Positions 34,656 through 60,814 of a stretch of 64,000 nucleotides of DNA are shown piece after piece. The DNA comes from Riemerella anatipestifer. Its GTDB lineage: Bacteria; Bacteroidota; Bacteroidia; Flavobacteriales; Weeksellaceae. Below the pieces are notes generated by a model. That model made no database searches, was not told the origin of the DNA, and was given only the letters and a program-made list of their open reading frames with translations. Position numbers and translations under genes: made by a program. Where the stretch lies: assembly GCF_009670965.2 (NCBI RefSeq), contig NZ_CP073239.1:1674001-1738000 (forward strand). The letters are read 5' to 3'. Position 1 is the stretch's first letter; each line of letters begins with the position of its first letter.

Positions 34656-34674
34656 TGTGTTAGCAGATATATTT

Positions 34675-35913
34675 ATGAAACAACCGTTAATAACACGAAT
34701 ATTTAAAATATTAAAGATTGTAACCATTACAATAATTTCTTCTATTATTATTTTTTTATTAGTTTTCGGGATTAATATAGAATATCAAGATGGGACACAT
34801 TCCACTTGGTCAGGCTTGAGAGTTTTATTTGAAGATAGAGACTTTGAACTTTGTTACAAAAAGAAACATATTGTAAAACTAAATGGTTTTGACGGTCCTT
34901 ATATTATTGGCTCAACAATGTATTATGTAGATTCTTTAAATATTTTAAGAACAACGAGATATAAAAAAAATGACTCTATTTTAGTTAGGGTAAATAATAA
35001 AGATTTAGATAAATTTTACTTCTTAAAAAAAGCAATAATTCAAAAAACTGCTGATTCTTATGCAATGCCACAAAAGTTAATTGCAATTTCAGATATTGAA
35101 GGAAATTTTGATGCTTTTTCAAGTTTTCTCATAAACAATAAAGTAGTAGATACTAATTATAACTGGATTTTTGGTAATGGACATTTAGTCCTTACGGGGG
35201 ATTTTGTAGACAGAGGTACAGATGTAACCGCAGTACTTTGGCTAATTTATAAATTGGAAGAACAGTCTGAAAAACAAGGTGGAAAAGTACATTATATATT
35301 AGGTAACCACGAGATAATAAATTTTCAAGGACGATTTAAATATAATAACGAAAAATATATTAAGGTTGCTAGTTTAATTAGTAAAACAGAGGATTGGAAA
35401 AAAGCAACTCAATATATATTTTCTGAAAAAACAGAATTAGGAAAATGGTTGCGTTCAAAAAATGGAATAGAAAAAATAGGAAATTACATTTTTGTTCATG
35501 CGGGATTGAGTCCAAATATTTTAAAGTATAATTTATCAATTTCAGATATTAACAGTCTTTCTCAACAAAACTGGTCAAAAGATTTATACAACGAACCAGG
35601 AAGTAATGAAAAAGCCAATTTTTTAATTGGTAGAGAAGGCATATTTTGGTATAGAGGCTTAGCAATTGATTATAAACACTACAACAAAATATCTGAAACC
35701 GAATTAAACAAAGTCTTGAATTTTTATCAAGCAAAAAAAATAGTATTTGGTCATACAATTAGCGACAATATCAAAAAAGAATATAATGGAAAATTAATAA
35801 ATATTGATGTTGCTCACGGACAAGAAAAGAACTCTGACAAAACCAAAGGTTTGTTAATTGAAAACGGTAATGAATATATAATTGATGGAAATGGAAGAAA
35901 AACAAAACTATAA
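34675..35913 (+). CDS. membrane-anchored metallophosphoesterase (cassette 1)
   Basis: About 412 residues from ATG 34675; the in-frame GTG at 34657 straddles the cassette boundary and was rejected. An N-terminal transmembrane anchor (IVTITIISSIIIFLLVFG) is followed by a calcineurin-like phosphoesterase domain: AISDIEGNFDAF, LTGDFVDRG, YILGNHEI, FVHAGL and VFGHT supply the metal ligands. Substrate unknown; Shewanella- and PPP-type phosphatases share this motif order. The cassette starts GTTAGCAGAT (34659) and ends ATCTGCTAAC (35921). Confidence 0.85.
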   Translation: MKQPLITRIFKILKIVTITIISSIIIFLLVFGINIEYQDGTHSTWSGLRVLFEDRDFELCYKKKHIVKLNGFDGPYIIGSTMYYVDSLNILRTTRYKKNDSILVRVNNKDLDKFYFLKKAIIQKTADSYAMPQKLIAISDIEGNFDAFSSFLINNKVVDTNYNWIFGNGHLVLTGDFVDRGTDVTAVLWLIYKLEEQSEKQGGKVHYILGNHEIINFQGRFKYNNEKYIKVASLISKTEDWKKATQYIFSEKTELGKWLRSKNGIEKIGNYIFVHAGLSPNILKYNLSISDINSLSQQNWSKDLYNEPGSNEKANFLIGREGIFWYRGLAIDYKHYNKISETELNKVLNFYQAKKIVFGHTISDNIKKEYNGKLINIDVAHGQEKNSDKTKGLLIENGNEYIIDGNGRKTKL

Positions 35914-35920
35914 AAAATAC

Positions 35921-36112
35921 ATCTGCTAACATAGTATTTGCAAAAGGCGGAGATATGGTGTTAAATTGAAAAGCTGAACATTTATTCCGCATATGCTTTT
36001 CAATTCAACTATTTTGAGTAATTTAGCTTCATCGAAAAAGCATATGCTACGGTTGGTCGAAATTGAACTTTTCGTTCAATTTAGCCCGCCCTTCGCAAAT
36101 ACTTTTTCCGTT
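35921..36112 (+). repeat. attC-like site 1 (long class)
   Basis: Left core ATCTGCTAAC (35921) complements the start of cassette 1. Arms ATAGTATTTGCAAAAGGCGG and CCGCCCTTCGCAAATAC pair across about 140 bp that contain further hairpins. Right core GTT at 36110. Confidence 0.85.
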
Positions 36113-36131
36113 AGCTGTAATTTTACCAAAA

Positions 36132-36614
36132 ATGCGTACAAATATGACTTTTAAAACTGGTGTGTTAATTTTTATTTTGATTTTTGTTTCTAAAATTAAT
36201 GCTCAACAATTTCCTGTGAATTTCGATATTGACAGTCTTAAATCGGCAAAAATTAATCCTGAAAAATGGAATGGAAAATTAATTTCTGTACAATGTGCTA
36301 TTAAGAACATTGAAAAAGGACCGAAGAAAAAACCTTATTACAAATGTAACATTGATAACGATAATTTCATTTGGATAGGTTCATTGATGAACGACAAAGA
36401 CAGGCTAAAATTAGAAGAGAATGTTAGAGTTTTAGGATATTTTTCATTGATAGAAAATCAAGACAAAATTTCTACAAAATACAATACAGATAAATTCCAT
36501 TTATTAACTTTTGCTGTAATAAATCTTACAATGAAAAAAGCATATCATTTACCAGGAGCGGAAACCCAATTTGAAGAATGGAAGAACGGAATTATTCAAC
36601 AGACTGATAATTAA
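36132..36614 (+). CDS. secreted protein of unknown function (cassette 2)
   Basis: About 160 residues with a signal peptide (GVLIFILIFVSKINAQ). ATG 36132 lies 22 bases inside the cassette; ATG 36144 is an alternative start. The mature part contains VQCAIKNIEKGPKKKPYYKC and a small beta domain (FIWIGSLMNDKDRL), vaguely like an OB-fold. No family recognised. Cassette ends GTTAGCTGTA / TACAGCTAAC. Confidence 0.7.
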   Translation: MRTNMTFKTGVLIFILIFVSKINAQQFPVNFDIDSLKSAKINPEKWNGKLISVQCAIKNIEKGPKKKPYYKCNIDNDNFIWIGSLMNDKDRLKLEENVRVLGYFSLIENQDKISTKYNTDKFHLLTFAVINLTMKKAYHLPGAETQFEEWKNGIIQQTDN

Positions 36615-36616
36615 AC

Positions 36617-36810
36617 TACAGCTAACATAGTATTTGCAAAAGGCGGAGTTTAGGGGGTAATAGAAAAATTAGTAATATTTACTCGCAAAATGCTTTTCAT
36701 TACCACAATTTTGTTTAATTTAGTGGCATTGAAAAAGCATTTGCTACGGTTGGACTGAATTGAACTATAGGTTCATTTCAGTTCCGCCCTTCGCAAATAC
36801 CTTTTCCGTT
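36617..36810 (+). repeat. attC-like site 2 (long class)
   Basis: Left core TACAGCTAAC complements the start of cassette 2 (GTTAGCTGTA at 36110). Right core GTT at 36808. Long-class arms. Confidence 0.85.
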
Positions 36811-37268
36811 ACCAGCTATACACTCCAAACATTTCGCTAAGGACTTGAAACGATTAAAAAACGCTCTAAATTGTGAATAATAAGAAACTGAATTCAGACC
36901 CAACCGAGCAGTGCGTGTTAGGGGTCTAAATTCATTTTCTACCACGGACGACTTAAAAGCATATTTTGAATGAGCCGACTCCTAAAAAATGTTGGAGAGT
37001 ACAGCTGATAACTTTTAACGCTCGACAGAATGTTGGACTTTTAAAACCTAAAAAAAGAGGAAAAATCCCAAAGGAAAGAACCTCAAACTGACGAAAAGCG
37101 AAAAAACGAATGGATTTCGGAGCTGAAAACGAGTAACCCAAAAACTACGGAACTGACTTAAAGGCTGAAAAATTAAACGGTCAAATTGTGGACTTGAACG
37201 CTGAAAATGTGAAAAACGTGCGGACTGAAAACTATGCGGAAAAGACACCACGCAGAAAAAAATAGTAC
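36811..37268 (+). repeat. ORF-less ~460-bp cassette, copy 1
   Basis: Body of a cassette beginning GTTACCAGCT (36808) and closed by AGCTGGTAAC (37269). The same sequence recurs at 53383 and 56083. No frame is conserved among copies, since they differ by frame-changing indels. A hairpin at 36890-36933 (GAATTCAGACCC with GGGTCTAAATTC) is preserved. The plus strand is purine-rich in its second half. Likely a non-coding RNA or a decayed gene. Confidence 0.75.
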
Positions 37269-37398
37269 AGCTGGTAACAAGGTATTGCCGCAAGCGGGGG
37301 ATATTTGCATTTTAGAAAATTTTGTTTACTTTTGAAGTATGGTATTTTGTTTGAAGTTAGGTGCTATAAGCCCCGCCTTCGGCAATACCCGGACCGTT
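37269..37398 (+). repeat. attC-like site 3 (short class)
   Basis: Left core AGCTGGTAAC; arms AAGGTATTGCCGCAAGCGG and CCGCCTTCGGCAATACC; right core GTT at 37396. About 130 bp. Confidence 0.85.
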
Positions 37399-37410
37399 AG
37401 CCGTAATTTT

Positions 37411-38076
37411 ATGAGAGATACCCTTACAAAACGAGAAGTTGAAGATTTTTTAAGGTCATTTAGAATAATGATTCAAGAGTTAATAAATTGCACTTCAAAT
37501 GTTGAAAAAATAGTAGAAGAAAATAAAAATAATTACAAACAGATTAATTTTATTAGACCTTTTCTAAACCATTATGTAAATTTATGTTACACACAAAGCG
37601 TAATAACAATTTCAAAACTTTTTGCGGAATCCGAAAAAAGAAGTTTTAACAAGTTATTAAATAAACTTGAAAATTTTACTTATGATGATGAATTAAAAGC
37701 AGTTTTAAACCAAAATAAAGAAAAATTTGAAGAAGGAGATGTTGGTGAATATGACTATTTATTTAAGAACAAACAAGAAATCAAAATAGAAATATCAAGG
37801 ATAAGACTTGAAATTTCTAAAGTTGAAGAAATTTTAAACAAAATAAAAAGTCGTAGAGATTCATATTACGCACATCTTGACCCATCAAAACAAAATGAAA
37901 TTGAAGTTGAAACTCTTTCGGATTTGAAAATCTGTCTTAACCTTGCAGAAGAAATATTTAATAAATTTTTCGTAAGTCTATTAAATACAACATTCATTTT
38001 TAATATTTGTGGAATAGACGATATAATTGACTTAGCAAAAGAAAGTTATATTGAATCAATAGAAAATTTTAAATAA
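37411..38076 (+). CDS. HEPN (AbiU2-like) domain protein (cassette 4)
   Basis: 221 residues, all alpha-helical in character. ATG 37411 is 15 bases inside the cassette. A C-terminal segment LNKIKSRRDSYYAHLDP resembles the RDxxxAH motif of AbiU2-type HEPN proteins, where R and H form a ribonuclease site. HEPN proteins often act in abortive infection or as toxins. No partner antitoxin lies in this one-gene cassette. The family call is from the motif only. Confidence 0.6.
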   Translation: MRDTLTKREVEDFLRSFRIMIQELINCTSNVEKIVEENKNNYKQINFIRPFLNHYVNLCYTQSVITISKLFAESEKRSFNKLLNKLENFTYDDELKAVLNQNKEKFEEGDVGEYDYLFKNKQEIKIEISRIRLEISKVEEILNKIKSRRDSYYAHLDPSKQNEIEVETLSDLKICLNLAEEIFNKFFVSLLNTTFIFNICGIDDIIDLAKESYIESIENFK

Positions 38077-38082
38077 AAAAAC

Positions 38083-38274
38083 TACGGCTAACATAGTATT
38101 TGCAAAAAGCGGGAGTCAAATTCAAGTTGAACTTTTTGTAAAATTTAGCCGCAACTTGCTTTTCGTTACATATTTTTTTGTAATTTCGTTCCACGAAAAA
38201 GCAATTTGCTTCGGTTGGTTGAAATTGAACCTTTCAGTTAAATTTAGTCCGCCTTTCGCAAATACTCAACCGTT
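38083..38274 (+). repeat. attC-like site 4 (long class)
   Basis: Left core TACGGCTAAC complements cassette start GTTAGCCGTA (37396). Right core GTT at 38272, immediately before the tet(X) cassette. Confidence 0.85.
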
Positions 38275-38289
38275 ATGTGCCATTTTTGA

Positions 38290-39456
<1,167 letters not shown>

Positions 39457-39469
39457 AATGGAATAAAAC

Positions 39470-39601
39470 GGCACATAACAAACAAATTGGCAATAGAGCC
39501 GGTGAAGTACTTCTATTGAACTTTTGTGCAATGTTGAAGATTAGTAATTCTATTCAACATTTGTGCTAAAAGTCGGCTCCATCGCCAATTTGCCAAACGT
39601 T
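39470..39601 (+). repeat. attC-like site 5 (short, diverged)
   Basis: Left core GGCACATAAC complements the tet(X) cassette start. Arms AAATTGGCAATAGAGCCGG and CGGCTCCATCGCCAATTTG pair. Right core GTT at 39599. The arm sequence differs from the main classes. Confidence 0.82.
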
Positions 39602-39647
39602 AGCGGGCATTGTGAAAGATACCAGCATAACAGTTAAACATTGATAA

Positions 39648-40562: not shown

Positions 40563-40578
40563 TAAACAAAAACAACGA

Positions 40579-40707
40579 CCCGCTAACAATGTATATAAAA
40601 AATAGGCGAAACAGTAGTAAATTCAAGGCTTTTGGCTCGTATTATACTTTGTGCTTAACCGAAAATTTGGCACTTCGAAATCGCCTACTTTTCATATACT
40701 AACCGTT
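40579..40707 (+). repeat. attC-like site 6 (short, diverged)
   Basis: Left core CCCGCTAAC complements the start of the hydrolase cassette. Arms AATGTATATAAAAAATAGGCG and CGCCTACTTTTCATATACT pair. Right core GTT at 40705. Confidence 0.8.
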
Positions 40708-40755
40708 ATGCGACATTTTATCCAATCACATTAAATTGACAAAATATTAAATAAA

Positions 40756-41205
40756 ATGCTAAAACTTTACAAAGAAATTAATGGAGTTCTTCATTATTGG
40801 GAAACTTGGGATGAAGATGACAAAACAGGTCTTGTTCATTGGGGAACTGTTGGAGAAAATGGAGAGCAAAAAAAAGTAAAATCCACACTTTTAAAAAATT
40901 TTCATAAAATAATTCAACAGGAAATTAATGAGAAGATTAATGAAGGTTATGAGCAAATAGACGAAGATGATTTAAAATTTCTAATAATTGAATATAAACT
41001 AAATTCTGACTTTGGAAATGAAGAAGACTTGGAAAAACGGCACAGACTTGAAGCCAAAATGAATGAAGATTTGGGATGGAACCTATCATTGGGTAATTGG
41101 TTATTTTCTCACGGAAGAAGAGGCCAGGGGAACACAGGTTCACGATGCAGTAATTCCAAATCCCCGCATGGTGTTCATTTCACCTACAATTTACAAAGTA
41201 CTTCC
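40756..41205 (+). pseudogene. WGR-domain protein, truncated (cassette 7)
   Basis: The first ~120 residues read as a WGR domain (MLKLYKEINGVLHYWETWD, GLVHWGTVGENGEQKKV) plus a helical part. After about 41120 the sequence becomes unlike either part (GNTGSRCSNSKSPHGVH) and runs in frame into a dihydrofolate reductase, giving a 317-residue chimeric frame. The natural C-terminus of the WGR protein and the closing palindrome of this cassette (expected complement of GTTATGCGAC) are missing. An insertion with deletion is the simplest explanation. Confidence 0.7.
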
Positions 41206-41709
41206 ATGAAAGTAGCATTGATTGTTGCTGTTGATCAGCAATTCGGTATTGGAAAGAACAATGATTTGATGTGGCATTTGCCTGCAGATATGAAATTTTT
41301 CAAAGAAACAACCACGGGACATATTGTGGTTACAGGTAGAAAAAACTACGATTCCATTCCGGAACGTTTTCGGCCGTTGCCCAACCGCGAGAATGCGGTC
41401 TTAACACGCAATACCGAATATCATGCTCCTGGAGCAGTTGTTTTTTCTTCCTTGGAATCCTGTTTGGATCATTATAAAAATGAAGTGGAACGAACCGTTT
41501 TCATAATTGGAGGCGGACAAATTTACCGAGAAGCTTTAGCGCTTGATTGTGTTCAAGAGATGTTTATTACCCATGTGCAGGGCGAATTTGGTGCAGATAC
41601 CTTCTTCCCGAAATTCGAAGCTGTCGCTTGGAATGTTGAAACGGTAGCAACCCAAGTAGTGGATGAGAAAAATGCCTATGCGTTTGAAGTGAAAAGGTAT
41701 TGGAGGTAA
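41206..41709 (+). CDS. dihydrofolate reductase
   Basis: 167 residues from ATG 41206. Reduces dihydrofolate to tetrahydrofolate with NADPH. Motifs: LIVAVDQQFGIGKNNDLMWHLPADMKFF with the catalytic acid, VVTGRKNYDSIP, and FIIGGGQIYREAL. Codon use and GC content are higher than in the neighbours. It is fused in frame behind a broken WGR cassette and lacks its own cassette ends. Whether it is a displaced housekeeping folA or a trimethoprim-insensitive dfr cannot be told from sequence alone. Confidence 0.9.
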   Translation: MKVALIVAVDQQFGIGKNNDLMWHLPADMKFFKETTTGHIVVTGRKNYDSIPERFRPLPNRENAVLTRNTEYHAPGAVVFSSLESCLDHYKNEVERTVFIIGGGQIYREALALDCVQEMFITHVQGEFGADTFFPKFEAVAWNVETVATQVVDEKNAYAFEVKRYWR

Positions 41710-41843
41710 CGTGATTACTTGATGAGAAATAAGAAATCATTGTCTACCTACTTTCGTTATATTTGATCAAATAAAGAAACAAACCTGCACAAAAACATCA
41801 AGTATTATGCTGTTTTGTACAGAAAAGCCGTATCAATAAATAA
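41710..41843 (+). other. non-cassette junction after dihydrofolate reductase
   Basis: No gene and no palindrome of the array type. It ends exactly at the GTT (41844) that opens the aadS cassette, so foreign DNA is joined at a cassette boundary. Confidence 0.6.
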
Positions 41844-41876
41844 GTTGTACGACATAGTAAAACCGAACCAAACAAA

Positions 41877-42740
41877 ATGAAAGTCAGAGAAGAAAAGTTA
41901 AGAACAATTATAGAATGGTCGGAGAAAAACGAAGATGTAAGAGTTCTTCTTCTGACAAGTTCACTTGTAAATCCTTTAGCACTTGTTGACGAATTTAGTG
42001 ATTTAGACATTGAATTTGTTTTTGAGGATAATACAAATTACATTTCAGACAAAAGCTGGACGCTTAAATTCGGAAATCCAATTGCTATGATTGAAGAAGA
42101 CGAAAGTTGTTTTAACCATAAACACGCAATGAAAATGCTACTTTATGAAGACGGTGTGAAAGTAGATTTTAAACTTTACAGCAAATCAAAATTTATAAAG
42201 GAAACGCAAGAGAAAGAATTACCAGAAGATTGGGATATTGGTTATAAAATTTTAATTGATAAAGATGGTATTACAAAGCAAATGCTGAAACCAACTTATC
42301 AAATTTCCATTATCAAAAAACCGTCTGAAAAAGAGTTTCAAAATCTAATAAACGATTTTTGGTGGGACACAACTTACGTGGCAAAGTGTCTTGTGAGAGA
42401 TGAAATATTCTATGCGAAATTTATGTCGGAAACCGTTATTCGCACAGAATATTTAATTCCTTTAATTGAATGGCACATTGCAAGTGAACACAATTGGAAC
42501 ATAACGACCAATAAATATGGACGACTTTTCAAAAAGTATCTTAACCAGGAAATGTGGGCTAAAACAGAACAAACATTTTCAGGGAGCAATATAAAGGAAA
42601 ATTGGACTGCTCTATTTTCAATGACTGATTTAGTTTCAGAAATAGGAACTGAATTGTCAAAAAAATTAGAGTACAAATACCCGGATAAATTAGAAAATGA
42701 CATACGAAAATATTTAGCTGGACTAAAACCCAAAACATAA
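41877..42740 (+). CDS. aadS: aminoglycoside 6-adenylyltransferase AadS (cassette 8)
   Basis: 287 residues, the length of AadS. As recalled, it is nearly identical to the Bacteroides transposon enzyme. MKVREEKLRTIIEWSE at the start, LLLTSSLVNP, and the nucleotidyltransferase aspartates in DEFSDLDIEFVFED are present. It adenylylates streptomycin-type aminoglycosides. The cassette runs from GTTGTACGAC (41844) to GTCGTACAAC (42745). tet(X) and aadS are also close together on Bacteroides elements Tn4351/CTnDOT. Confidence 0.93.
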   Translation: MKVREEKLRTIIEWSEKNEDVRVLLLTSSLVNPLALVDEFSDLDIEFVFEDNTNYISDKSWTLKFGNPIAMIEEDESCFNHKHAMKMLLYEDGVKVDFKLYSKSKFIKETQEKELPEDWDIGYKILIDKDGITKQMLKPTYQISIIKKPSEKEFQNLINDFWWDTTYVAKCLVRDEIFYAKFMSETVIRTEYLIPLIEWHIASEHNWNITTNKYGRLFKKYLNQEMWAKTEQTFSGSNIKENWTALFSMTDLVSEIGTELSKKLEYKYPDKLENDIRKYLAGLKPKT

Positions 42741-42744
42741 CTAC

Positions 42745-42872
42745 GTCGTACAACATCGTATTGGCAATAGGCGGGCTGAACGGCTTCGTATCAACGGAAG
42801 TGCAAAATTCAATTTCTGTTCTTCGATTAAAGTTCAGTGCTAAAAATCCCGCCCATCGCCAATACGCGGCAC
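42745..42872 (+). repeat. attC-like site 8 (short, diverged)
   Basis: Left core GTCGTACAAC complements the aadS cassette start. Arms ATCGTATTGGCAATAGGCGG and CCGCCCATCGCCAATACGC. The right end meets mini-cassette 1 instead of GTT. Confidence 0.85.
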
Positions 42873-43032
42873 GATGTAGCGAAATCCGCTTCGCTCCTTT
42901 CGCTACATCGGCTCGGCGGCTTACACCGCCTGATGAGCTCGTCGCTTCGCGAACTTCGCACATCAAGCGGTTTTGCAAAATTCCCTCTCGGAAGCAGAGC
43001 TTCCAGAGGAAACTTCGCAAAGCCGCCGAGCC
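42873..43032 (+). repeat. 160-bp mini-cassette, copy 1
   Basis: Starts GATGTAGCGAAA, whose complement TTTCGCTACATC follows at 42898. Arms GGCTCGGCGGCT and AGCCGCCGAGCC then pair at the far end. Ends directly before GTT (43033). GC-rich, open in several frames on both strands, but no credible gene. Confidence 0.88.
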
Positions 43033-43067
43033 GTTATCTGCTATTTTATAAAAATCTCGCAAATTAA

Positions 43068-43883: not shown

Positions 43884-43890
43884 AAAAACG

Positions 43891-44082
43891 GCAGATAACA
43901 TCGTATTGCTAAAATGCGGGACTGAAGGCTCTTGCGTTGAAAGTTTTGTGAAATTTAGTTGCAAAAAATGTTTCCGCTTCCATTTTTTTATTAATTTAGT
44001 CAGCGGAAAACATTTTTTGCTTCGTGCAGGTTTTAATAGAAATTTTAGGTGTAAAAGCCCGCACTTCAGCAATACTTTTTCC
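43891..44082 (+). repeat. attC-like site 9 (long class)
   Basis: Left core GCAGATAAC complements cassette start GTTATCTGC (43033). Right arm ends at ...TTTTTCC followed by mini-cassette 2. Confidence 0.85.
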
Positions 44083-44242
44083 GATGTAGCGAAATCCGCT
44101 TCGCTCCTTTCGCTACATCGGCTCGGCGGCTTACACCGCCTGATGAGCTCGTCGCTTCGCGAACTTCGCACATCAAGCGGTTTTGCAAAATTCCCTCTCG
44201 GAAGCAGAGCTTCCAGAGGAAACTTCGCAAAGCCGCCGAGCC
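44083..44242 (+). repeat. 160-bp mini-cassette, copy 2
   Basis: Same 160-bp sequence as copy 1 (GATGTAGCG...GCCGAGCC), inserted between the palindrome end and GTT at 44243. Confidence 0.9.
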
Positions 44243-44275
44243 GTTACCTACAATTTTACCCAAAAATCGCCAATA

Positions 44276-44929
44276 ATGACTGAATATGAGAATAAATCAA
44301 TTTTTCAAGGCTCAAAAGAGTATCTTGAAAAAAGTTTTTTAGAAGAATTAAATTATAAGATTTGGTCAACAAAAGGTGCCAGATTTGAAGCAGATAAAAG
44401 GTTGACAATCGTTTCGAAAACTTCCAGCATAACTTTATCAATATTCTCCGCTTATTTGATAATATCGGGGTTGATTTCCGTGTATAATATTAATTCCGAC
44501 ATAAAAATTGATGTAATAAATTATGTTGTTACTGCCTTAAGTATTTTACTTTTAGTGTTATCACAATATGAAAATTCGCAGAATTATAATTTGAGGGCGA
44601 ATAATTATCATAATTGTGGTTTGGAATTAAGCAAACTTTATAACGAATTACGAAACTTTAAAACATTACACGAAAACCCTTCCGAATATACAAAAAGAGA
44701 ATTCGCGTTAAAACTTTCTCAAGAGTATCAAAATATATTATCAAAATATGAAAATCATTTGACTATTGATTATCAAAATTTCAAGATAAGCCACCGTGAA
44801 TATTTTACAGAAATTCAACAAAAAGATATTAATAAGATAAAGCGTATAAATTTTTGGATTAGATACGGTTGGTATACATTAATTTTAATTTTAACGCCAA
44901 TACTTATATTTATTATTTGTTTAATTTAA
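44276..44929 (+). CDS. SLATT-domain membrane protein (cassette 10)
   Basis: 217 residues from ATG 44276. Two central transmembrane helices (SITLSIFSAYLIISGLI and VVTALSILLLVLSQYENS), a long helical region with NYNLRANNYHNCGLELSKLY, and a C-terminal helix. This matches the SLATT family, two-helix effectors proposed to form pores in nucleotide-signalling defence systems. No SMODS synthase or sensor gene lies beside it. Cassette ends GTTACCTACA / TGTAGGTAAC. Confidence 0.72.
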   Translation: MTEYENKSIFQGSKEYLEKSFLEELNYKIWSTKGARFEADKRLTIVSKTSSITLSIFSAYLIISGLISVYNINSDIKIDVINYVVTALSILLLVLSQYENSQNYNLRANNYHNCGLELSKLYNELRNFKTLHENPSEYTKREFALKLSQEYQNILSKYENHLTIDYQNFKISHREYFTEIQQKDINKIKRINFWIRYGWYTLILILTPILIFIICLI

Positions 44930-44933
44930 AAAA

Positions 44934-45126
44934 CTGTAGGTAACATAGTATTTGCAAAAGGCGGGGAGAAGTGTTGAATTGAAAAGCGGAAATATTTAGT
45001 CGCATATGCTTTTCAATTCAACTTTTTTTTAATAATTTAGTTTCATTGAAAAAGCATCTGCTTTGGTTTGTCGAAATTGAACTTTTCGTTCAATTTAGTC
45101 CGCCCTTCGCAAATACTTTTTCCGTT
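44934..45126 (+). repeat. attC-like site 10 (long class)
   Basis: Left core TGTAGGTAAC complements cassette start at 44243. Arms of the long class. Right core GTT at 45124. Confidence 0.85.
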
Positions 45127-45161
45127 AGCTGTAACTTTTCCCAAGCATACGCATAAATTTG

Positions 45162-46230: not shown

Positions 46231-46420
46231 TACAGCTAACATAGTATTTGCAAAAGGCGGGGTAAAGGTGTCGAATTGAAAATTTGGTTACATTTATCCG
46301 CTCCTGTTTTTCCGTATTACTTTTTTTCTTAAATTAGCAATACGGAAAAAGCATCCGCTTCGGTTGGTTGAAATTGAACGAATAGTCCAATTTAGCCCGC
46401 CCTTCGCAAATACTTTTTCC
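46231..46420 (+). repeat. attC-like site 11 (long class)
   Basis: Left core TACAGCTAAC complements cassette start GTTAGCTGTA (45124). Right arm meets mini-cassette 3. Confidence 0.85.
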
Positions 46421-46580: not shown

Positions 46581-46650
46581 GTTAGTGGCAACCTTTGAAG
46601 AACCGTACAAACAAAGAGACTATTGAATAACTGAAATAATTATTTAAAAG

Positions 46651-47171: not shown

Positions 47172-47175
47172 GGCA

Positions 47176-49082: not shown

Positions 49083-49274
49083 TGCCTACAACATAGTATT
49101 TGCAAAAGGCGGGGTTAAGGTGTTGAATTGAAAAGCTGAAATATTTAGCCGCATATGCTTTTCAATTCAACTATTTTAAGTAATTTAGTTTCATTGAAAA
49201 AGCATCTGCTTCGGCTGGTCGAAATTGAACTATCCATTCAATTTAGCCCGCCCTTCGCAAATACTTTTTCCGTT
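49083..49274 (+). repeat. attC-like site 14 (long class)
   Basis: Left core TGCCTACAAC complements start GTTGTAGGCA (48211). Right core GTT at 49272. Confidence 0.85.
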
Positions 49275-49305
49275 ACCTGCAAGTTTAACCAAATATACCG
49301 ACTTA

Positions 49306-51701: not shown

Positions 51702-51896
51702 TGCAGGTAACATCGGTTTTGCAAAAGCGAGGGTGAAGTTCCCTTGCGGTGAAAGTTTTGTAATTTCTATCCGCAAAAAACTTTTCCATTTTTTATTTTT
51801 TTGTAATTTTAAAAATGGAAAAAGTTTTTGCTCAGGTTCGTGTTTATAGAAAGTTTCGAACTTCTTAGCCCCGCCTTCGCAAAGCCGTTTCCCGTT
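51702..51896 (+). repeat. attC-like site 15 (long class, variant)
   Basis: Left core TGCAGGTAAC complements start GTTACCTGCA (49272). Arms ATCGGTTTTGCAAAAGCG and CGCCTTCGCAAAGCCG. Right core GTT at 51894. Confidence 0.84.
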
Positions 51897-51903
51897 ATCT
51901 GCA

Positions 51904-52511: not shown

Positions 52512-52704
52512 TGCAGATAACAGTGTATTTGCAAAAAACGGGGTTGAATTTTTCCTTTGAGAATTAATTTTTTTATATCCGCAAAAATGCTTTTCATCTT
52601 TCAATTTTTAGTAATTTAGAAATCTGAAAAAGCATTTTGCTCCGCGGGGTTTTTCCTTATCACTTTTGGTTTGCAGTAGCCCGTTCTTCGCAAATACTTT
52701 TTCC
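52512..52704 (+). repeat. attC-like site 16 (long class, variant)
   Basis: Left core TGCAGATAAC complements start at 51894. Right arm ...TTCGCAAATACTTTTTCC meets mini-cassette 4. Confidence 0.85.
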
Positions 52705-52864
52705 GATGTAGCGAAATCCGCTTCGCTCCTTTCGCTACATCGGCTCGGCGGCTTACACCGCCTGATGAGCTCGTCGCTTCGCGAACTTCGCACATCAAGC
52801 GGTTTTGCAAAATTCCCTCTCGGAAGCAGAGCTTCCAGAGGAAACTTCGCAAAGCCGCCGAGCC
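52705..52864 (+). repeat. 160-bp mini-cassette, copy 4
   Basis: Same sequence as copies 1-3; GTT of the next cassette at 52865. Confidence 0.9.
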
Positions 52865-53253
52865 GTTGCACGCCACACTACTGAAAATCACTCAGCTGAA
52901 ATAAAGTTAAATTTTTGAGTTATAAAAGAAACTGAATCCAAACCGAACAAAGAGAATGTAGAAAGGTTTGAATTCATTTTCTGTTTTTGTATCACGGAAT
53001 AGAATTGACTTTTCCTCGGAGTGAATTTTCAATAGTATAGCGTATAACGAAGCAGACTCTGAATTGACTTTACTAACTTAGTGACTATAATTCCTATGAA
53101 AAGCTGAATTGAAAATAGAGAAGAATTGAATTTGAAAAACAGGAATTGATTTTAGGAAACCGAAATTGACTGAAAAATCTTGGAAAATTGAATTTTAACT
53201 TGTGTGAATATACCATATTGTGAATACTAACTAACAACTGAAACGAAAGTCCA
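52865..53253 (+). other. ORF-less cassette with conserved hairpin
   Basis: Cassette from GTTGCACGC (52865) to GCGTGCAAC (53254) with no credible frame. A hairpin GAATCCAAACC (52934) with GGTTTGAATTC (52965) is flanked by AAACT and ATTTTCT. It corresponds to the hairpin in the 460-bp ORF-less cassettes but uses different paired bases, which suggests conserved RNA structure. Confidence 0.6.
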
Positions 53254-53382
53254 GCGTGCAACACGGGTTTTGCAAAAAAGCGGGAGCGGTTTTATTTGGA
53301 CATAATGAAATTTTTATTACCTTTGTGTAATTGGGGGAAGGTTAGCGGTTTTTAGCCCGCTTCTTCGCAAAGCCCCACCATT
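53254..53382 (+). repeat. attC-like site 17 (short, diverged)
   Basis: Left core GCGTGCAAC complements start at 52865. Arms CGGGTTTTGCAAAAAAGCGGG and CCCGCTTCTTCGCAAAGCCC. The right core reads ATT (53380) instead of GTT. Confidence 0.8.
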
Positions 53383-53841
53383 ACCAGCTATACACTCCAA
53401 ACATTTCGCTAAGGAACCGAAACGATTCAAAATGCTCTAAATTGTGAATAGGAAGAAACTGAATTCAGACCCAGCCGAGCAGAACGTGTTAAAGGGTCTA
53501 AATTCATTTTCTACTACGGACGACTTAAAAAGCATATTTTTGAATGAGCCGACTCTTAAAAAATATTGGAGAGTACAGCTGGCAACTCATAACACTCGAC
53601 TGAATGTTGGACTTTTAAAACTTGAAATAGAGAATAAAACCCAAAGGAAAGAACCTCAAACTGACGAAAATCGGAAAAACGAATGGATTTCGGAACTGAA
53701 AACGAGTAACCCAAAAACTACGGAACTGACTTAAAGGCTGAAAAACTAAACTGTCAAATTGTGGACTTGAACGCTGAAAATGTGAAAAACGTGCGGACTG
53801 AAAACTATGCGGAAAAGACACCACGCAGAAAAATATAGTAC
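53383..53841 (+). repeat. ORF-less ~460-bp cassette, copy 2
   Basis: About 90% similar by eye to copy 1 (36811), with frame-changing indels. Hairpin at 53461-53505. A 96-residue plus-strand frame (53444-53734) is present here but is interrupted in the other copies, so it is not annotated as a gene. Start ATTACCAGCT, end AGCTGGTAAC. Confidence 0.75.
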
Positions 53842-53973
53842 AGCTGGTAACAAGGTATTGCCGCAAGCGGGGCTGATTTTGCATTTTAGAAAATTTTGTT
53901 TACTTTTGAAGAGTGGTATTTTAGTTGAAGTTAGGTGCTAAGAGGCCCCGCCTTCGGCAATACCCGGACCGTT
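53842..53973 (+). repeat. attC-like site 18 (short class)
   Basis: Left core AGCTGGTAAC; short-class arms AAGGTATTGCCGCAAGCGG and CCGCCTTCGGCAATACC; right core GTT at 53971. Confidence 0.85.
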
Positions 53974-53999
53974 GTGTGCAATTCTCCCAGCAAAATGTC

Positions 54000-55021: not shown

Positions 55022-55152
55022 TGCACACAACAAGGTATTGCCGCAAGCGGGGGATATTTGCATTTTAGAAAAATTTGTTTATCTTTGAAGTATTGCATTT
55101 TGTTTGAAGTTGGGTGCTGAGGAGTCCCGCCTTCGGCAATACCTGGACCGTT
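55022..55152 (+). repeat. attC-like site 19 (short class)
   Basis: Left core TGCACACAAC complements start GTTGTGTGCA (53971). Right core GTT at 55150. Confidence 0.85.
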
Positions 55153-55203
55153 GTGCGAAATGCTAAATCAACATTCGCTAAAGATAAATTAATAGAAAAA
55201 TAA

Positions 55204-55935: not shown

Positions 55936-55951
55936 AATTTGAGAAGCACAA

Positions 55952-56082
55952 TCGCACAACAAGGTATTGCCGCAAGCGGGGGTAATTGTTTTTTTAGAAA
56001 ATTTTGTTTACTTTTGAAGTATGGTATTTTAGTTGAAGTAAGGTGCTGGGAAGTCCCCGCCTTCGGCAATACCCTGACCGTT
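55952..56082 (+). repeat. attC-like site 20 (short class)
   Basis: Left core TCGCACAAC complements start at 55150. Right core GTT at 56080. Confidence 0.85.
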
Positions 56083-56554
56083 ACCAGCTATACTCTCCAA
56101 ACATTTCGCTAAGGACTTGAAACGATTAAAAAAACGCTCTAAATTGTGAATAATAAGAAACTGAATTTAGACCCTGCCGAACAGTACGTGTTATGGGTCT
56201 AAATTCATTTTCTACTACGGACGATTGAAAAGTATTTTGAATGAGCCGACTCTTAAAAAATGTTGGAGAGTACAGCTAGTAACTTTTAACGCTTGACTGA
56301 ATGTTAGATTTTAAAACCTAAGAAGAAAGGAAAAGCCTAGAAGGAAGGGAATTCAAATTGACGAAAAGCGAAAAAGCAACTGAATTTCGGAACTGAAAAA
56401 TGAAAAAGAATAACTAAAAACTATACGAAACTGACTAAAATCGGAGAAACTAAAAAGACCGAAATGAATAGATTGCGGGCTTGAACGCTGAAAACGTCTA
56501 AAACGTACGGATTTAAAAATTATACGGAAAGACACCACACCGAAAAAATAGTAC
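56083..56554 (+). repeat. ORF-less ~460-bp cassette, copy 3
   Basis: Third, more diverged copy of the sequence at 36811. The hairpin at 56163-56206 is perfectly paired here (GAATTTAGACCC with GGGTCTAAATTC). Start GTTACCAGCT (56080), end AGCTGGTAAC (56555). Confidence 0.75.
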
Positions 56555-56685
56555 AGCTGGTAACAAGGTATTGCCGCAAGCGGGGTTTATTTCTTTTTTA
56601 GAAACTTTTGTCTATCTTTGGAGTATGGTATTTTAGTTGAAGTTAGGTGCTAAGAATCCCCGCCTTCGGCAATACTCTTCCCGTT
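56555..56685 (+). repeat. attC-like site 21 (short class)
   Basis: Left core AGCTGGTAAC; short-class arms; right core GTT at 56683. Confidence 0.85.
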
Positions 56686-56719
56686 ATCTGTAATTTTTAA
56701 TCAAAATCAACAATTTGAA

Positions 56720-57591: not shown

Positions 57592-57779
57592 TACAGATAA
57601 CATAGTATTTGCGCAAGGCGGGGAGGAGTAATGAGTTGAAAAGTAGAAATATTTATCCGCATCTGCTTTTCCGTATTACTTTTTTGAGTAAATTAGCAAT
57701 ACGGAAAAAGCATCCGCTTCGGTTGGTCGAAATTGAACGAAAGGTTCAATTTAGTCCGCCCTTCGCAAATACTTTTCCC
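57592..57779 (+). repeat. attC-like site 22 (long class)
   Basis: Left core TACAGATAAC complements start at 56683. Right arm ...CTTCGCAAATACTTTTCCC meets mini-cassette 5. Confidence 0.85.
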
Positions 57780-57939
57780 GATGTAGCGAAATCCGCTTCG
57801 CTCCTTTCGCTACATCGGCTCGGCGGCTTACACCGCCTGATGAGCTCGTCGCTTCGCGAACTTCGCACATCAAGCGGTTTTGCAAAATTCCCTCACGGAA
57901 GCAGAGCTTCCAGAGGAAACTTCGCAAAGCCGCCGAGCC
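57780..57939 (+). repeat. 160-bp mini-cassette, copy 5
   Basis: Same as copies 1-4 except CCCTCACGG for CCCTCTCGG. GTT of the next cassette at 57940. Confidence 0.9.
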
Positions 57940-57999
57940 GTTGTCTGCAATAATTTACCAATTATTACGCTGAATCCAATTTTATTAAAAATTTGTACG

Positions 58000-58013
58000 T
58001 ATATTTGTACAAA
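58000..58013 (+). promoter_or_regulatory. promoter/operator of the Phd-YoeB cassette
   Basis: TATATTTG (-7 box) at 58000-58007 overlaps the palindrome TTTGTACAAA (58004-58013), with a second TTTGTAC ten bases upstream. TGTACA is the known core of YefM-YoeB operators, so autoregulation by the antitoxin is likely. Confidence 0.65.
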
Positions 58014-58023
58014 ATATTAAATC

Positions 58024-58278
58024 ATGTTTGTAGCAAGTGTATCAGATTTTAGGAAAGACATTAAAAGTTATTTCGACCGAGTGACGAAAAACTTTGAAAC
58101 CTTAATCATCAATCGAGGAAAGGATTCAGGTATTGTCGTGATGTCTTTAGACGAGTATAATTCTTTAATGGCAACGAATCATGAACTCTCATCAAAGAAA
58201 AACGAAATGAGACTTGATACTGCTATTGAAAAACTTAAAAAAGGTTCTTCTTTTCAAAAAGAATTAATTGAAGAGTGA
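58024..58278 (+). CDS. Phd/YefM family antitoxin (cassette 23, gene 1)
   Basis: 84 residues. The N-terminal fold FRKDIKSYFDRVTKNFETLIINRGKDSG with VVMSLDEYNSL is the Phd/YefM DNA-binding signature. The C-terminal tail would neutralise the toxin. Stop overlaps the toxin ATG (TGATG). It has its own promoter, unlike most cassettes here. Confidence 0.88.
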   Translation: MFVASVSDFRKDIKSYFDRVTKNFETLIINRGKDSGIVVMSLDEYNSLMATNHELSSKKNEMRLDTAIEKLKKGSSFQKELIEE

Positions 58279-58535
58279 TGAAATATGTTTTTGTAGACGA
58301 ATCTTGGGAGGATTATTTATACTGGCAAAAAATTGATAAAAAGAAACTAAAGAGAATTAATGATCTACTCAAAGACATTTCAAGAAATCCATTTGAGGGC
58401 ATTGGCAAGCCTGAACCTCTAAAGCATAAATATTCCGGTTTTTGGTCAAGAAGAATTGATGATGAGCATAGACTGATTTATAAATTTGAGGACGACCAAA
58501 TATTAATAGCAAAGTGCAGATTTCATTATGATTGA
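58278..58535 (+). CDS. YoeB/Txe family mRNA interferase toxin (cassette 23, gene 2)
   Basis: 85 residues from ATG 58278, the usual YoeB length. DESWEDYLYWQKIDKKKLKRI, PFEGIGKPEPLKH, SGFWSRRIDDEHRLIY and the C-terminal CRFHYD with catalytic histidine are all present. It cleaves mRNA at the ribosome. Cassette ends GTTGTCTGCA (57940) / TGCAGACAAC (58543). Confidence 0.92.
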   Translation: MKYVFVDESWEDYLYWQKIDKKKLKRINDLLKDISRNPFEGIGKPEPLKHKYSGFWSRRIDDEHRLIYKFEDDQILIAKCRFHYD

Positions 58536-58542
58536 GAATTAC

Positions 58543-58735
58543 TGCAGACAACATAGTATTTGCAAAAGGCTGGGTTAAGTTCAGGGTTGAAAGTTTGGGA
58601 ATATTTATCCGCTCCTGCTTTTCCGTATTACTTTTTTTCTTAGTTTAGCAATACGGAAAAAGCATCCGCTTCGGTTTGGTCGAAATTGAACTATTGGTTC
58701 AATTTAGTCCGCCCTTCGCAAATACTTTTCCCGTT
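58543..58735 (+). repeat. attC-like site 23 (long class)
   Basis: Left core TGCAGACAAC complements start at 57940. Right core GTT at 58733. Confidence 0.85.
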
Positions 58736-58783
58736 GTAGGCAATGCTTCCAGAACACGTAAAACATCAAAAAAAATAATTTTA

Positions 58784-59462: not shown

Positions 59463-59590
59463 TGCCTACAACAAGGTATTGCCGCAAGCGGGGTTAATTG
59501 TTTTTTTAGAAACTTTTGTTTATCTTTGAAGTATGGTATTTCAGTTGGAGTTAGGTGCTAATAAGCCCCGCCTTCGGCAATACCCGGACC
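59463..59590 (+). repeat. attC-like site 24 (short class)
   Basis: Left core TGCCTACAAC complements start at 58733. Short-class arms. Right end meets mini-cassette 6. Confidence 0.85.
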
Positions 59591-59750
59591 GATGTAGCGA
59601 AAGGAGCGAAGCGGATTTCGCTACATCGGCTCGGCGGCTTACACCGCCTGATGAGCTCGTCGCTTCGCGAACTTCGCACATCAAGCGGTTTTGCAAAATT
59701 CCCTCACGGAAGCAGAGCTTCCAGAGGAAACTTCGCAAAGCCGCCGAGCC
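59591..59750 (+). repeat. 160-bp mini-cassette, copy 6 (hairpin inverted)
   Basis: Same element, but the first 37 bp are in reverse orientation: between GATGTAGCGAAA and TTTCGCTACATC the spacer reads GGAGCGAAGCGGA instead of TCCGCTTCGCTCC. It shares the CCCTCACGG variant with copy 5. GTT of the next cassette at 59751. Confidence 0.9.
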
Positions 59751-59765
59751 GTTACCTGCAAGTTT

Positions 59766-60377
59766 ATGAGAGAACCGCATCAAATCATAGTTTCTGAAAA
59801 ATATGTCATTGAATTATTTAACTTAAACTATTCTGATAATTATGGTGATTTTAAAATTATTTATGCCAATCTTGAAACTCAATCTAACCTTATTGGTATA
59901 AAAATTTTTGAAAATAATAAAGAAATTAATTCTTGCATTATTGGTTCTGAAGGTGGTTCAACAGCAATTCATAACAACTCTAACCTTTTAAGTTATGATG
60001 GAATTGTTTTTTGTTGTGGAAATTCAATAATCAAACTTACAGTTCCAACTCTTAAGTTAGAATGGAAAACAATATCTGACACAATGACTTGCTTTGAAAT
60101 TTTTTATCTTGAAAATGATTATTTAATTCACGGTGAACTTGAAATTACAAGAATGGACAGAAATGGAAAAATCGTATGGCAAAATGGTGGAAAAGATATT
60201 TTCACTACACCAGAAGGAAAAAAAGATTTTTACTTTACAGAAAATGAAATAATTGCTATGGATTGGAATTATGAAAAATACATATTTGACTATAGCGGAA
60301 ATTTAAAATCAATAACTAAATCAGAAAATATAAATCTAGCCAAAAAGGAAAAAAATAAGTGGAAATTTTGGAAATAG
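59766..60377 (+). CDS. hypothetical protein (cassette 25)
   Basis: 203 residues from ATG 59766, 15 bases inside the cassette. Soluble; repeated short strands (ITRMDRNGKIVWQNGGKD, YIFDYSGNLKSI) suggest a partial beta-propeller. No family assigned. Cassette ends GTTACCTGCA / TGCAGGTAAC. Confidence 0.62.
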   Translation: MREPHQIIVSEKYVIELFNLNYSDNYGDFKIIYANLETQSNLIGIKIFENNKEINSCIIGSEGGSTAIHNNSNLLSYDGIVFCCGNSIIKLTVPTLKLEWKTISDTMTCFEIFYLENDYLIHGELEITRMDRNGKIVWQNGGKDIFTTPEGKKDFYFTENEIIAMDWNYEKYIFDYSGNLKSITKSENINLAKKEKNKWKFWK

Positions 60378-60386
60378 AGAAAAACC

Positions 60387-60578
60387 TGCAGGTAACATAG
60401 TATTTGCAAAAGGCGGGTTAAGTGCAGGGTTGAAAATTTGGTAATATTTATCCGCTTCTGCTTTTCCGTATTACTTTTTTTCTTAGTTTAGCAATACGGA
60501 AAAAGCATCCGCTTCGGTTGTGCTGAATTGAACTTGTTGTCCAATTCAGTCCTGCCCTTCGCAAATACTTTTCCCGTT
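60387..60578 (+). repeat. attC-like site 25 (long class), last in array
   Basis: Left core TGCAGGTAAC complements start at 59751. Right core GTT at 60576. Confidence 0.85.
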
Positions 60579-60643
60579 GTACGCAATTTTAGAAAAACAT
60601 ACGCATAAAATTGAAATACGATAATGTCTAAATTTATACAATT

Positions 60644-60814
60644 ATGAGAAAAATTCTGTTAACTTTTGCTCTAATTTGTCTATTTATTTCTTGTAGCAGG
60701 GACGAGAACAATACTGCTCTCAACGGAACGTTTTCCGAAATCACACCTATTGGAAACAGGACAAAGATGAATTTTAAATCACAGAATATACTTTCCATAA
60801 TCAAACCCGTATAA
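60644..60814 (+). pseudogene. lipoprotein fragment in a truncated last cassette
   Basis: 56 residues: signal with lipobox FISC, then SRDENNTALNGTFSEIT and an early stop. The cassette opens with GTTGTACGCA (60576), but the expected closing TGCGTACAAC and palindrome are absent. The 3' part was probably removed when the phage-like segment arrived. Too short for the track used on other genes; coding of the fragment is likely but its function is lost. Confidence 0.6.

What the first reader, a model, noticed from the sequence alone, without database searches (positions are those of the whole stretch)
34659..60814. A 26-kb integron-like cassette array with non-classical recombination sites and no integrase
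Seen directly: 26 larger units plus six mini-units, one orientation, separated by 24 palindromes of ~130 or ~190 bp with conserved arms and variable loops. Topology equals a chromosomal integron, but the core is GTTRNNN (for example GTTAGCT, GTTGTAG, GTTATCT), not GTTRRRY, and no tyrosine recombinase is in the window. Either an integrase elsewhere acts in trans or this is a separate recombination system of Flavobacteriia. Programs tuned to classical attC sites would probably miss it.
Basis: partly seen in the sequence, partly recalled or inferred. Interest (0 to 1): 0.95.

Follow-up and report, generated by a model that had tools for sequence, protein, structure and literature searches.

The report
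Bacteroidota integron with a non-IntI integrase
A bacterium close to the duck pathogen Riemerella carries 24 gene cassettes, several with drug-resistance genes, lined up behind one conserved attachment site; they were likely gathered by a Bacteroidota kind of integron whose predicted integrase is not the classical one, and the mobile tigecycline-resistance gene tet(X) likely escaped from such an array.

Summary
In detail: 24 palindromic sites, 24 one-directional cassette intervals and six 160-nt mini-units (34,659-60,585). Each cassette's first 10 nt pair with its own last 10 nt (161/168 matches at positions 4-10; facing arms of one site 81/168, i.e. chance), as expected if cassettes circularise and insert at G|TT. 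Relatives carry some of the same cassettes with edges at G|TT. The first cassette follows a conserved attI, 'TTTCGTATATTTGTGT|GTT'. Candidate integrase: a 358-aa tyrosine recombinase at a fixed locus in three array-rich genomes of the genus. Of 80 named contigs with orthologs, 40 show such sites beside the gene (22 of the 80 two or more) and 52 an attI-like motif 128-252 nt from its start codon. It forms a clade apart from IntI, lacks the IntI-specific insert, and occurs in 68/320 genomes of the family, 66 of which have the sites. tet(X), estT, aadS, ere(D), erm(F), catB and blaOXA-347 are bounded as cassettes. The 'xerD' before tet(X3) in Acinetobacter is a truncated relative; an E. coli tet(X4)-estT module keeps an attI-like end. 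Recombination itself was not tested here.

The parts
34609..34661 (+). attI-like site; core 'TTTCTGATTGGAAATATTTCGTATATTTGTGT|GTT', with a TATATTTG promoter-like box (Bacteroidetes -7 consensus TAnnTTTG is recalled)
   Evidence: same sequence precedes different first cassettes in window, G001 and G005; same motif beside the integrase in other Bacteroidota
34659..35930 (+). cassette 1 (ORF 34675-35913, phosphatase-like)
   Evidence: start GTTAGCAGAT pairs with own end ATCTGCTAAC; NF001204 38 bits, below its cut-off 176
35921..36119 (+). attC-like site 1
36617..36817 (+). attC-like site 2
37269..37405 (+). attC-like site 3
37396..38092 (+). cassette 4, AbiU2/HEPN-like ORF (listed as 37339-38076)
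   Evidence: own-end pairing; PF18734 30.3 bits, cut-off 26.8
38083..38281 (+). attC-like site 4
38272..39479 (+). cassette 5: tet(X), ORF 38290-39456
   Evidence: NF033111 876.6 bits against cut-off 750; own ends 7/7
39470..39608 (+). attC-like site 5 (between tet(X) and estT; also between them in the Proteus plasmid L198)
39599..40587 (+). cassette 6: estT macrolide hydrolase, ORF 39648-40562
   Evidence: NF041759 531.4 bits against cut-off 450; 99% copy in G001, left edge 1 nt before G|TT start
40578..40714 (+). attC-like site 6
40705..42754 (+). interval 7, fusion of two cassettes: ORF 40756-41709 (C-terminal DHFR domain, about 41206-41709) and aadS (41877-42740; own start GTTGTACGACATA at 41844)
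   Evidence: NF033868 250.9 bits, below its cut-off 360; NF033387 518.3 bits, above 450; L195 start
42745..43042 (+). attC-like site 7, interrupted by a mini-unit
42873..43032 (+). mini-unit 1
43890..44252 (+). attC-like site 8, interrupted by a mini-unit
44083..44242 (+). mini-unit 2
44243..44944 (+). cassette 9
   Evidence: 99.9% copy in G002, edges -2 and +3 from G|TT
44935..45133 (+). attC-like site 9
46231..46590 (+). attC-like site 10, interrupted by a mini-unit
46421..46580 (+). mini-unit 3; folds as two hairpins, z -8.8
47175..47312 (+). attC-like site 11
48017..48220 (+). attC-like site 12
49083..49281 (+). attC-like site 13
51702..51903 (+). attC-like site 14
52512..52874 (+). attC-like site 15, interrupted by a mini-unit
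52705..52864 (+). mini-unit 4
53253..53389 (+). attC-like site 16; its core is ATTACCA (G to A)
53842..53980 (+). attC-like site 17
55022..55159 (+). attC-like site 18
55951..56089 (+). attC-like site 19
56555..56692 (+). attC-like site 20
57592..57949 (+). attC-like site 21, interrupted by a mini-unit
57780..57939 (+). mini-unit 5
57940..58552 (+). cassette 22: YefM/YoeB toxin-antitoxin pair (58024-58278, 58275-58535)
   Evidence: TIGR02116 above, NF008499 below its cut-off; 97% copies in G001 and G005, edges -2 and +9, -2 and +3 from G|TT
58543..58742 (+). attC-like site 22
59463..59760 (+). attC-like site 23, interrupted by a mini-unit
59591..59750 (+). mini-unit 6; its inner 13 nt are inverted relative to the other five
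60387..60585 (+). attC-like site 24 (last)

Best explanation
This is an array of 24 gene cassettes behind a conserved attI site, most likely built by an integron-type system whose predicted integrase is a tyrosine recombinase of a clade apart from IntI and would act in trans from elsewhere in the chromosome. Shown by sequence: each cassette carries self-complementary ends split at G|TT; relatives hold some of the same cassettes, cut at that point and among other neighbours; attI is conserved in front of different first cassettes; in many other Bacteroidota the recombinase gene, the same attI motif and sites of the same kind lie together. Inferred: one strand of a cassette's site folds into a hairpin, the recombinase cuts it at G|TT and joins it to attI (insertion) or to another site (excision and shuffling), and replication resolves the product; a promoter inside attI expresses the first cassettes. 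Because the enzyme lacks the IntI-specific insert and the own-end arms are about 10-13 bp (7 in classical attC, recalled), I infer that it reads the folded hairpin more as a Xer-like enzyme reads a double-stranded core site. Resistance genes (tet(X), estT, aadS and others) ride as cassettes, and pieces of such arrays were probably later picked up by ISCR2 and carried into Acinetobacter and E. coli.
For: Own-end pairing 161/168 against 81/168 within a site, 20,000 permutations at most 115, own start best or tied best in 24/24. Repeated in integrase-adjacent arrays: 59 cassettes, own >=6/7 in 50, same-site >=6/7 in 2. Cassette edges in relatives at G|TT: cassette 9 (-2, +3), cassette 22 (-2, +9 and -2, +3), cassette 6 (left edge -1 in 3 of 4 hits). 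attI conserved across window, G001 and G005 with three different first cassettes. Integrase: 358 aa with the catalytic residues kept. Of 80 named contigs with orthologs, 40 have sites beside the gene, 31 divergent and 9 co-directional; 25 of those 31 and all 9 also have an attI-like motif on that side; 52 of 80 have it 128-252 nt from the start codon on the divergent side, while shuffles reach the threshold in 2 of 158. Co-occurrence in the family 66/68 against 125/252, Fisher p 5e-15, not corrected for kinship. Independent experiment in print: PMC13148043 (section 11 read) saw aph(3')-IVb enter R. anatipestifer ATCC 11845 by natural transformation with 27 bp before and 140 bp after the gene, without flanking homology, the 140 bp folding like attC, mechanism left open.
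Against: No recombination was observed here. The window's own assembly is not held, so its integrase gene is inferred from G001, G002 and G005 (G002 and G005 proteins 97% and 96% identical to that of G001). 125 of 252 family genomes without the integrase (E<=1e-80) still have at least one site, G006 of the same genus among them (5 sites), so arrays can persist, or be served by a more distant recombinase. In the genus the integrase is not next to the array (about 25 kb past its end in G001) and has no CGTATATTTG motif in the stretches around it. 40 of 80 ortholog loci show no such site beside the gene, some because the contig ends there; 18 of the other 40 show only one. Outside the family clear orthologs are rare: 3 of 296 phylum genomes score above 550 bits, one of them G001 itself. 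In classical integrons the I2 helix is held to be what allowed single-strand recombination (PMC7790495, abstract and passages); this enzyme lacks that insert. The attI weight matrix was trained on 17 sequences of the same set. Of three sites folded, one did not fold clearly better than shuffles (z -1.0 and -1.7).
Confidence: 0.92

Rival explanations
1. A classical integron relic (CALIN): cassettes captured by an ordinary IntI that has since been lost, with degenerate sites.
For: No integrase found in the window; CALIN elements are described in the literature (PMC8618304, passages). Canonical IntI is over cut-off in 84 of 296 genomes sampled from the phylum.
Against: GTTRRRY 0/25. No IntI above the TIGR02249 cut-off in any of 40 relatives; 85 of the 86 phylum genomes with a strong TIGR02249 match are outside this class, although at least 57 of the 296 belong to the class. 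The same site type and attI motif lie beside the non-IntI recombinase.
Confidence: 0.03
2. The arrays are worked by XerC/XerD of the host, as Acinetobacter pdif modules are (recalled), and the 358-aa recombinase is an unrelated neighbour.
For: XerC/XerD-like matches are in 39 of 40 relatives; 125 genomes without the 358-aa enzyme still hold sites; the enzyme lacks the IntI insert, as Xer does.
Against: Sites are hairpins with own-end pairing and a variable core, not fixed dif sites; the attI motif lies 128-252 nt from this integrase's start codon in 52 of 80 loci; co-occurrence; clade separate from Xer, Xer 100/99 and 100/100.
Confidence: 0.04
3. Dispersed intergenic palindromes (REP/MITE-like) that accumulate between genes without cassette movement; shared edges reflect homologous recombination.
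For: Sites are repeated and similar; several shared edges run into neighbouring similar sites; the mini-units do behave like a small mobile element.
Against: The two arms of one site do not match each other beyond chance whereas the two ends of one gene unit do, also in other arrays; clean G|TT edges for cassettes 9 and 22; attI conservation.
Confidence: 0.01

Closest known systems
Chromosomal integrons (e.g. Vibrio superintegrons, recalled) with IntI, attI, attC
   Same: one-directional cassette array; attI at the head; G|TT exchange point; self-complementary cassette ends; integrase usually divergent from the array; toxin-antitoxin and resistance cassettes
   Different: integrase is not in the IntI clade and lacks the IntI-specific insert (KG-to-HxxR spacing 64-66 against 106-109 aa); core GTTRNNN instead of GTTRRRY; own-end arms about 10-13 bp with an A/C mismatch at position 11 in 22 of 24; different attI
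CALIN (cluster of attC lacking an integrase)
   Same: in the window the array has no adjacent integrase
   Different: a candidate integrase of the system lies elsewhere in the three closest array-rich genomes, and attI is kept
Xer/dif systems, XerA and archaeal Xer (PDB 4a8e)
   Different: associated with hairpin cassettes and attI; extra N-terminal part of about 80 residues; separate clade
attC-like tail of aph(3')-IVb in Riemerella anatipestifer (PMC13148043, 2026)
   Same: 140-bp 3' tail folding like attC, insertion without homology in R. anatipestifer
   Different: section 11 of that paper, which I read, names no integrase, attI or array, and reports that VRprofile2 found no mobile element at the insertion region

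Membership tests
integron (classical, IntI-based) | integrase with the IntI-specific additional domain | tested here: not met
   spacing from the KG motif to HxxR: 64 in 21 and 66 in 2 of 25 rows (2 misread) and 64 in 14 of 14; IntI 106 in 10 of 10, 106-109 in 5 of 10 (the other 5 not measurable); IntI4 positions 209-247 have no counterpart
integron (classical, IntI-based) | integrase above the TIGR02249 integron integrase cut-off | tested here: not met
   187.0, 184.6 and 181.6 bits against 265
integron (classical, IntI-based) | falls in the IntI clade | tested here: not met
   own clade 100/100 and 100/98; IntI separate
integron (classical, IntI-based) | attC core GTTRRRY / RYYYAAC | tested here: not met
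   0 of 25
integron (broad sense: platform that captures cassettes at attI) | cassettes with ends complementary across the circular junction | tested here: met
   24/24 own start best or tied best; 50/59 at 6/7 or more elsewhere
integron (broad sense: platform that captures cassettes at attI) | conserved attI next to the integrase gene | tested here: met
   in other Bacteroidota; in this genus attI is kept but the integrase lies elsewhere
integron (broad sense: platform that captures cassettes at attI) | cassette gain and loss between strains at G|TT | tested here: met
   8 of 24 cassettes have a counterpart, clean edges for 9 and 22, mixed for others
integron (broad sense: platform that captures cassettes at attI) | cassette promoter Pc | tested here: inconclusive
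   TATATTTG motif inside attI only; no expression data
integron (broad sense: platform that captures cassettes at attI) | recombination of a folded single strand by the integrase | not testable with these tools
   needs an assay; three sites folded, both strands, z -1.0 to -5.5
integron (broad sense: platform that captures cassettes at attI) | SOS control of the integrase | not tested
   -
tyrosine recombinase | catalytic R, K, HxxR, H/W, Y | tested here: met
   R215, H304, R307, H330 and Y339 invariant in 52 sequences, K240 in at least 90%
CALIN | attC cluster without nearby integrase | tested here: met
   no integrase among 30 scanned window ORFs; the attC meant in the definition is the classical one

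The most novel reading that the evidence does not exclude
A second kind of integron, which recruited single-strand hairpin recombination without the IntI I2 helix, is a major gene-capture system of the family Weeksellaceae and is scattered through the Bacteroidota; it has been overlooked because both integrase and site models are tuned to IntI and GTTRRRY, and it is the cradle from which tet(X) and a set of Bacteroidota resistance genes were launched into Acinetobacter and Enterobacteriaceae.
Probability: 0.7. Interest if true: 0.96.

Novelty: new variant of a known kind. Interest (0 to 1): 0.93.

Why it matters
IntegronFinder 2.0 reported only In0 elements, then one complete integron (Salinibacter), in Bacteroidetes (PMC9024848, passages). 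Reviews do list the phylum among hosts of integrons (PMC8618304, PMC9668308, passages), and canonical IntI is common in other classes of it. In this one family, however, a different kind shows: sites in 191 of 320 genomes and the integrase in 68. It offers a mechanism for the homology-free uptake of resistance genes in Riemerella that a 2026 paper left open (PMC13148043). It may fill a gap in the tet(X) story: a 2020 study found no alignment between tet(X) surroundings in Flavobacteriaceae and those in Acinetobacter or Enterobacteriaceae (PMC7494873, section 9 read). The shared elements would be the cassette, its site, attI and, in Acinetobacter, a truncated integrase known as 'xerD'. And it makes the role of the I2 helix testable, since an enzyme without that insert appears to serve hairpin sites.

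Tried and rejected
Considered and rejected: ordinary dispersed repeats, classical CALIN, host XerCD (see rivals). Rfam gathering scan of the window gives only a SAM riboswitch. The N-terminal 80 residues of the integrase are not covered by the structural matches (rows span 78-340) and were not searched alone. IntegronFinder or HattCI models were not available. A first pass had four R' starts off by 1-2 nt and gave poor scores for those cassettes; one search uses corrected positions. One search used 110 of the 117 matches (left out: 4 cut off by contig ends, L092, L095, L119, L146; 3 opposite-strand echoes, L087, L094, L111); sites missed in between lower its own-end scores. The co-occurrence tables were typed; one search scored at most 7 candidates a genome. 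Tree 74 used 24 of 71 recovered orthologs plus P0001; tree 101 used 14 members. In one search, 13 of 15 plasmid intervals reach 6/7 or more with the previous start; the other two give 1/7 (L194 ending 8493, where the end looks misread, and L192 ending 17399, a real mismatch). The site model finds no site at E<=0.5 in the E. coli L199 and Acinetobacter L233 stretches and only a 13.9-bit match in E. coli L193: their sites are cut short. The paper searches that bear on whether this is in print were made, of an open-access library without preprints; in the listings and passages that I saw, none describes this integrase or attI.


Full report
WHAT IS THERE. Between 34,659 and 60,585 the window holds 24 palindromic sites in one orientation. 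From AAC to GTT they measure 123-125 nt (9), 185-190 nt (9), or 284-349 nt where a 160-nt mini-unit is inserted (6). Many intervals carry ORFs reading the same way; some (36808-37278 and its kin) have no clear ORF. Cassette genes recognised: tet(X) (876.6 bits, cut-off 750), estT, aadS, a DfrA36-like dihydrofolate reductase domain (below that model's cut-off), a YoeB toxin with a YefM-like partner (the latter below cut-off), a PIN protein, a TerB protein, an AbiU2/HEPN protein. A covariance model built from the 18 uninterrupted sites finds nothing at E<=0.1 in the window before 35.9 kb and nothing at E<=0.5 in a class 1 integron record (L197).

THE KEY TEST. If these are cassettes that circularise and insert at G|TT, the first bases of a cassette must pair with the last bases of the same cassette, not with the facing arm of the site in which they lie. 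In 24 of 24 intervals the own start is the best, or tied best, partner of the own end among 25 starts. At positions 4-10 there are 161 of 168 matches, against 81 of 168 for the two arms of one site; 20,000 permutations gave mean 86.2, sd 6.5, maximum 115. As a rule the pairing runs 10 nt, is broken at position 11 (A against C in 22 of 24), and goes on for 2-4 nt. GTTRRRY fits 0 of 25 cores.

STRAIN COMPARISON. The left flank of the array is the same chromosomal place in window, G001 and G005. Eight of the 24 cassettes have a counterpart covering more than 85% in the stretches compared. Edges at G|TT are clean for cassette 9 (99.9%, -2 and +3) and cassette 22 (97%, -2 and +9, -2 and +3); cassette 6 has its left edge at -1 in 3 of 4 hits, two of which end 4 nt before its own R'' end and one 8 nt past the next core. 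Cassettes 3, 5, 16, 17 and 20 give mixed edges: some fall at G|TT, others run into similar neighbouring sites or, for 16-17 and for tet(X)-estT in Proteus, through a shared pair.

attI. Window, G001 and G005 share 'TTTCTGATTGGAAATATTTCGTATATTTGTGT|GTT' in front of three different first cassettes. TATATTTG inside it looks like the Bacteroidetes -7 promoter box (consensus recalled); expression was not tested.

THE INTEGRASE. TIGR02249 found no IntI above cut-off in 40 relatives. In G001, G002 and G005 the best match was a 358-aa tyrosine recombinase at a fixed chromosomal locus. It scores 187 bits or less against the cut-off of 265. Orthologs (E<1e-110) are in 10 of 40 relatives; within the genus they are in G001, G002 and G005 and not in G003, G004 and G006. 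G003 and G004 have no site-model match, G006 has five. A scan of named genome contigs kept 80 of 312 relatives, from Weeksellaceae to Paludibacter, Chitinophagales, Cytophagales and Kapaibacteria. The site model matched 117 times in these 80 loci; 110 matches in 41 loci were used. In 40 loci the sites lie as in an integron: in 31 upstream and divergent from the integrase, in 9 downstream and co-directional; the exception is R. anatipestifer L082 with a lone site. 22 of the 41 loci have two or more sites, 19 have one; many contigs end near the integrase. Searching for the partner of the first site's end showed attI-like starts close to the gene in most of these loci. A weight matrix made from 17 of them scores 8 or more in 53 of 80 loci on the divergent side and in 14 of 80 downstream, 4 in both and 17 in neither; shuffles reach 8 in 2 of 158. 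52 of the 53 lie 128-252 nt from the start codon, with a common form TT[GT]CGTATATTTGAG[AT]|GTT, much like the window's. 25 of 31 loci with divergent sites and 9 of 9 with co-directional sites have the motif on that side. Own-end pairing in these arrays: 59 cassettes, own 6/7 or more in 50, same-site in 2.

DISTRIBUTION. In the family, sites occur in 191 of 320 genomes (at most 7 candidates scored each) and the integrase (E<=1e-80) in 68 of 320; 66 genomes have both (Fisher p 5e-15, not corrected for kinship). 125 genomes have sites without the integrase. In 296 genomes across the phylum canonical IntI is over cut-off in 84; 85 of the 86 genomes with a match at E<=1e-45 lie outside this class, although at least 57 of the 296 are of the class. 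The new integrase's profile at E<=1e-70 reaches 82 of 296, but only G001, G356 and G522 score above 550 bits and the next has 390. So clear orthologs are frequent in this family and thin elsewhere in this sample, and classical integrons are common in other classes of the phylum.

RESISTANCE GENES. The site model matches beside resistance genes on plasmids of Riemerella, Sphingobacterium, Bacteroides, Myroides, Proteus and one Acinetobacter. Own-end pairing of 6-7 of 7 bounds cassettes with catB, estT, ere(D), erm(F), tet(X2), blaOXA-347 and aadS; 13 of 15 intervals reach 6/7, two give 1/7. A Proteus plasmid holds tet(X), the site and estT in the window's order. In an E. coli tet(X4) plasmid (L199) the estT cassette start is preceded by 'TTTCGTATATATATAA|GTT', attI-like; estT and tet(X4) abut without a site, and the tet(X4) cassette breaks off after 'GGCACATAA', upstream of ISVsa3. 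In an Acinetobacter tet(X3) plasmid the annotated 175-aa recombinase upstream is 54-61% identical to members of the new clade, but also 54-57% to the second group, against 41% to Xer and 30% to IntI; so it belongs to this wider group, not surely to the clade itself. tet(X3) begins at its cassette start behind 'TGGCGTATAGCCACTT|GTT'; its 3' end differs from the own start. I infer that ISCR2-borne tet(X3) and tet(X4) modules are chopped pieces of such integrons.

MINI-UNITS. Six copies of 160 nt lie exactly at C|GTT of a site; one was folded and forms two hairpins (z -8.8). They have own-end complementarity (GATGTAGCGAAA / TTTCGCTACATC) but core G|AT. One copy has its inner 13 nt inverted.

LITERATURE. 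Read as whole sections: PMC13148043 section 11, PMC7494873 section 9. Passages only: PMC9024848, PMC8618304, PMC9668308, PMC7790495, PMC7722449, PMC8352920. Others were seen in search listings only. No preprints are held.

Noticed in passing
window 41844-41856: The aadS cassette's own start (GTTGTACGACATA, as in L195) lies inside interval 7 without a site before it: two cassettes fused, with loss of the intervening site.
   Followed up: partly
window 42873-43032, 44083-44242, 46421-46580, 52705-52864, 57780-57939, 59591-59750: Mini-units of 160 nt with own-end complementarity but core G|AT; a different mini-unit of similar build sits in the site between estT and tet(X) of an Acinetobacter plasmid (L234, about 2870-3000).
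   Followed up: partly
window 36808-37278, 53380-53851, 56080-56564: A cassette family without a clear ORF is present three times here and repeatedly in G001, G002 and G005; one copy is the first cassette in G005.
   Followed up: no
L233 2802-3329: The recombinase known as xerD before tet(X3) in Acinetobacter is an N-terminally short relative of the new integrase clade or of its second group.
   Followed up: yes
L200 7998-16703: A Chryseobacterium plasmid carries a second-group recombinase with four sites downstream, and an IS110 element and a group II intron in the same stretch.
   Followed up: partly
window 9217-9319: SAM riboswitch (Rfam RF00162, 79.6 bits).
   Followed up: no
G005 C1, both ends: The two ends of the G005 contig hold the same array stretch (L043 and L045 matches repeat with a constant offset), probably an assembly overlap.
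   Followed up: no
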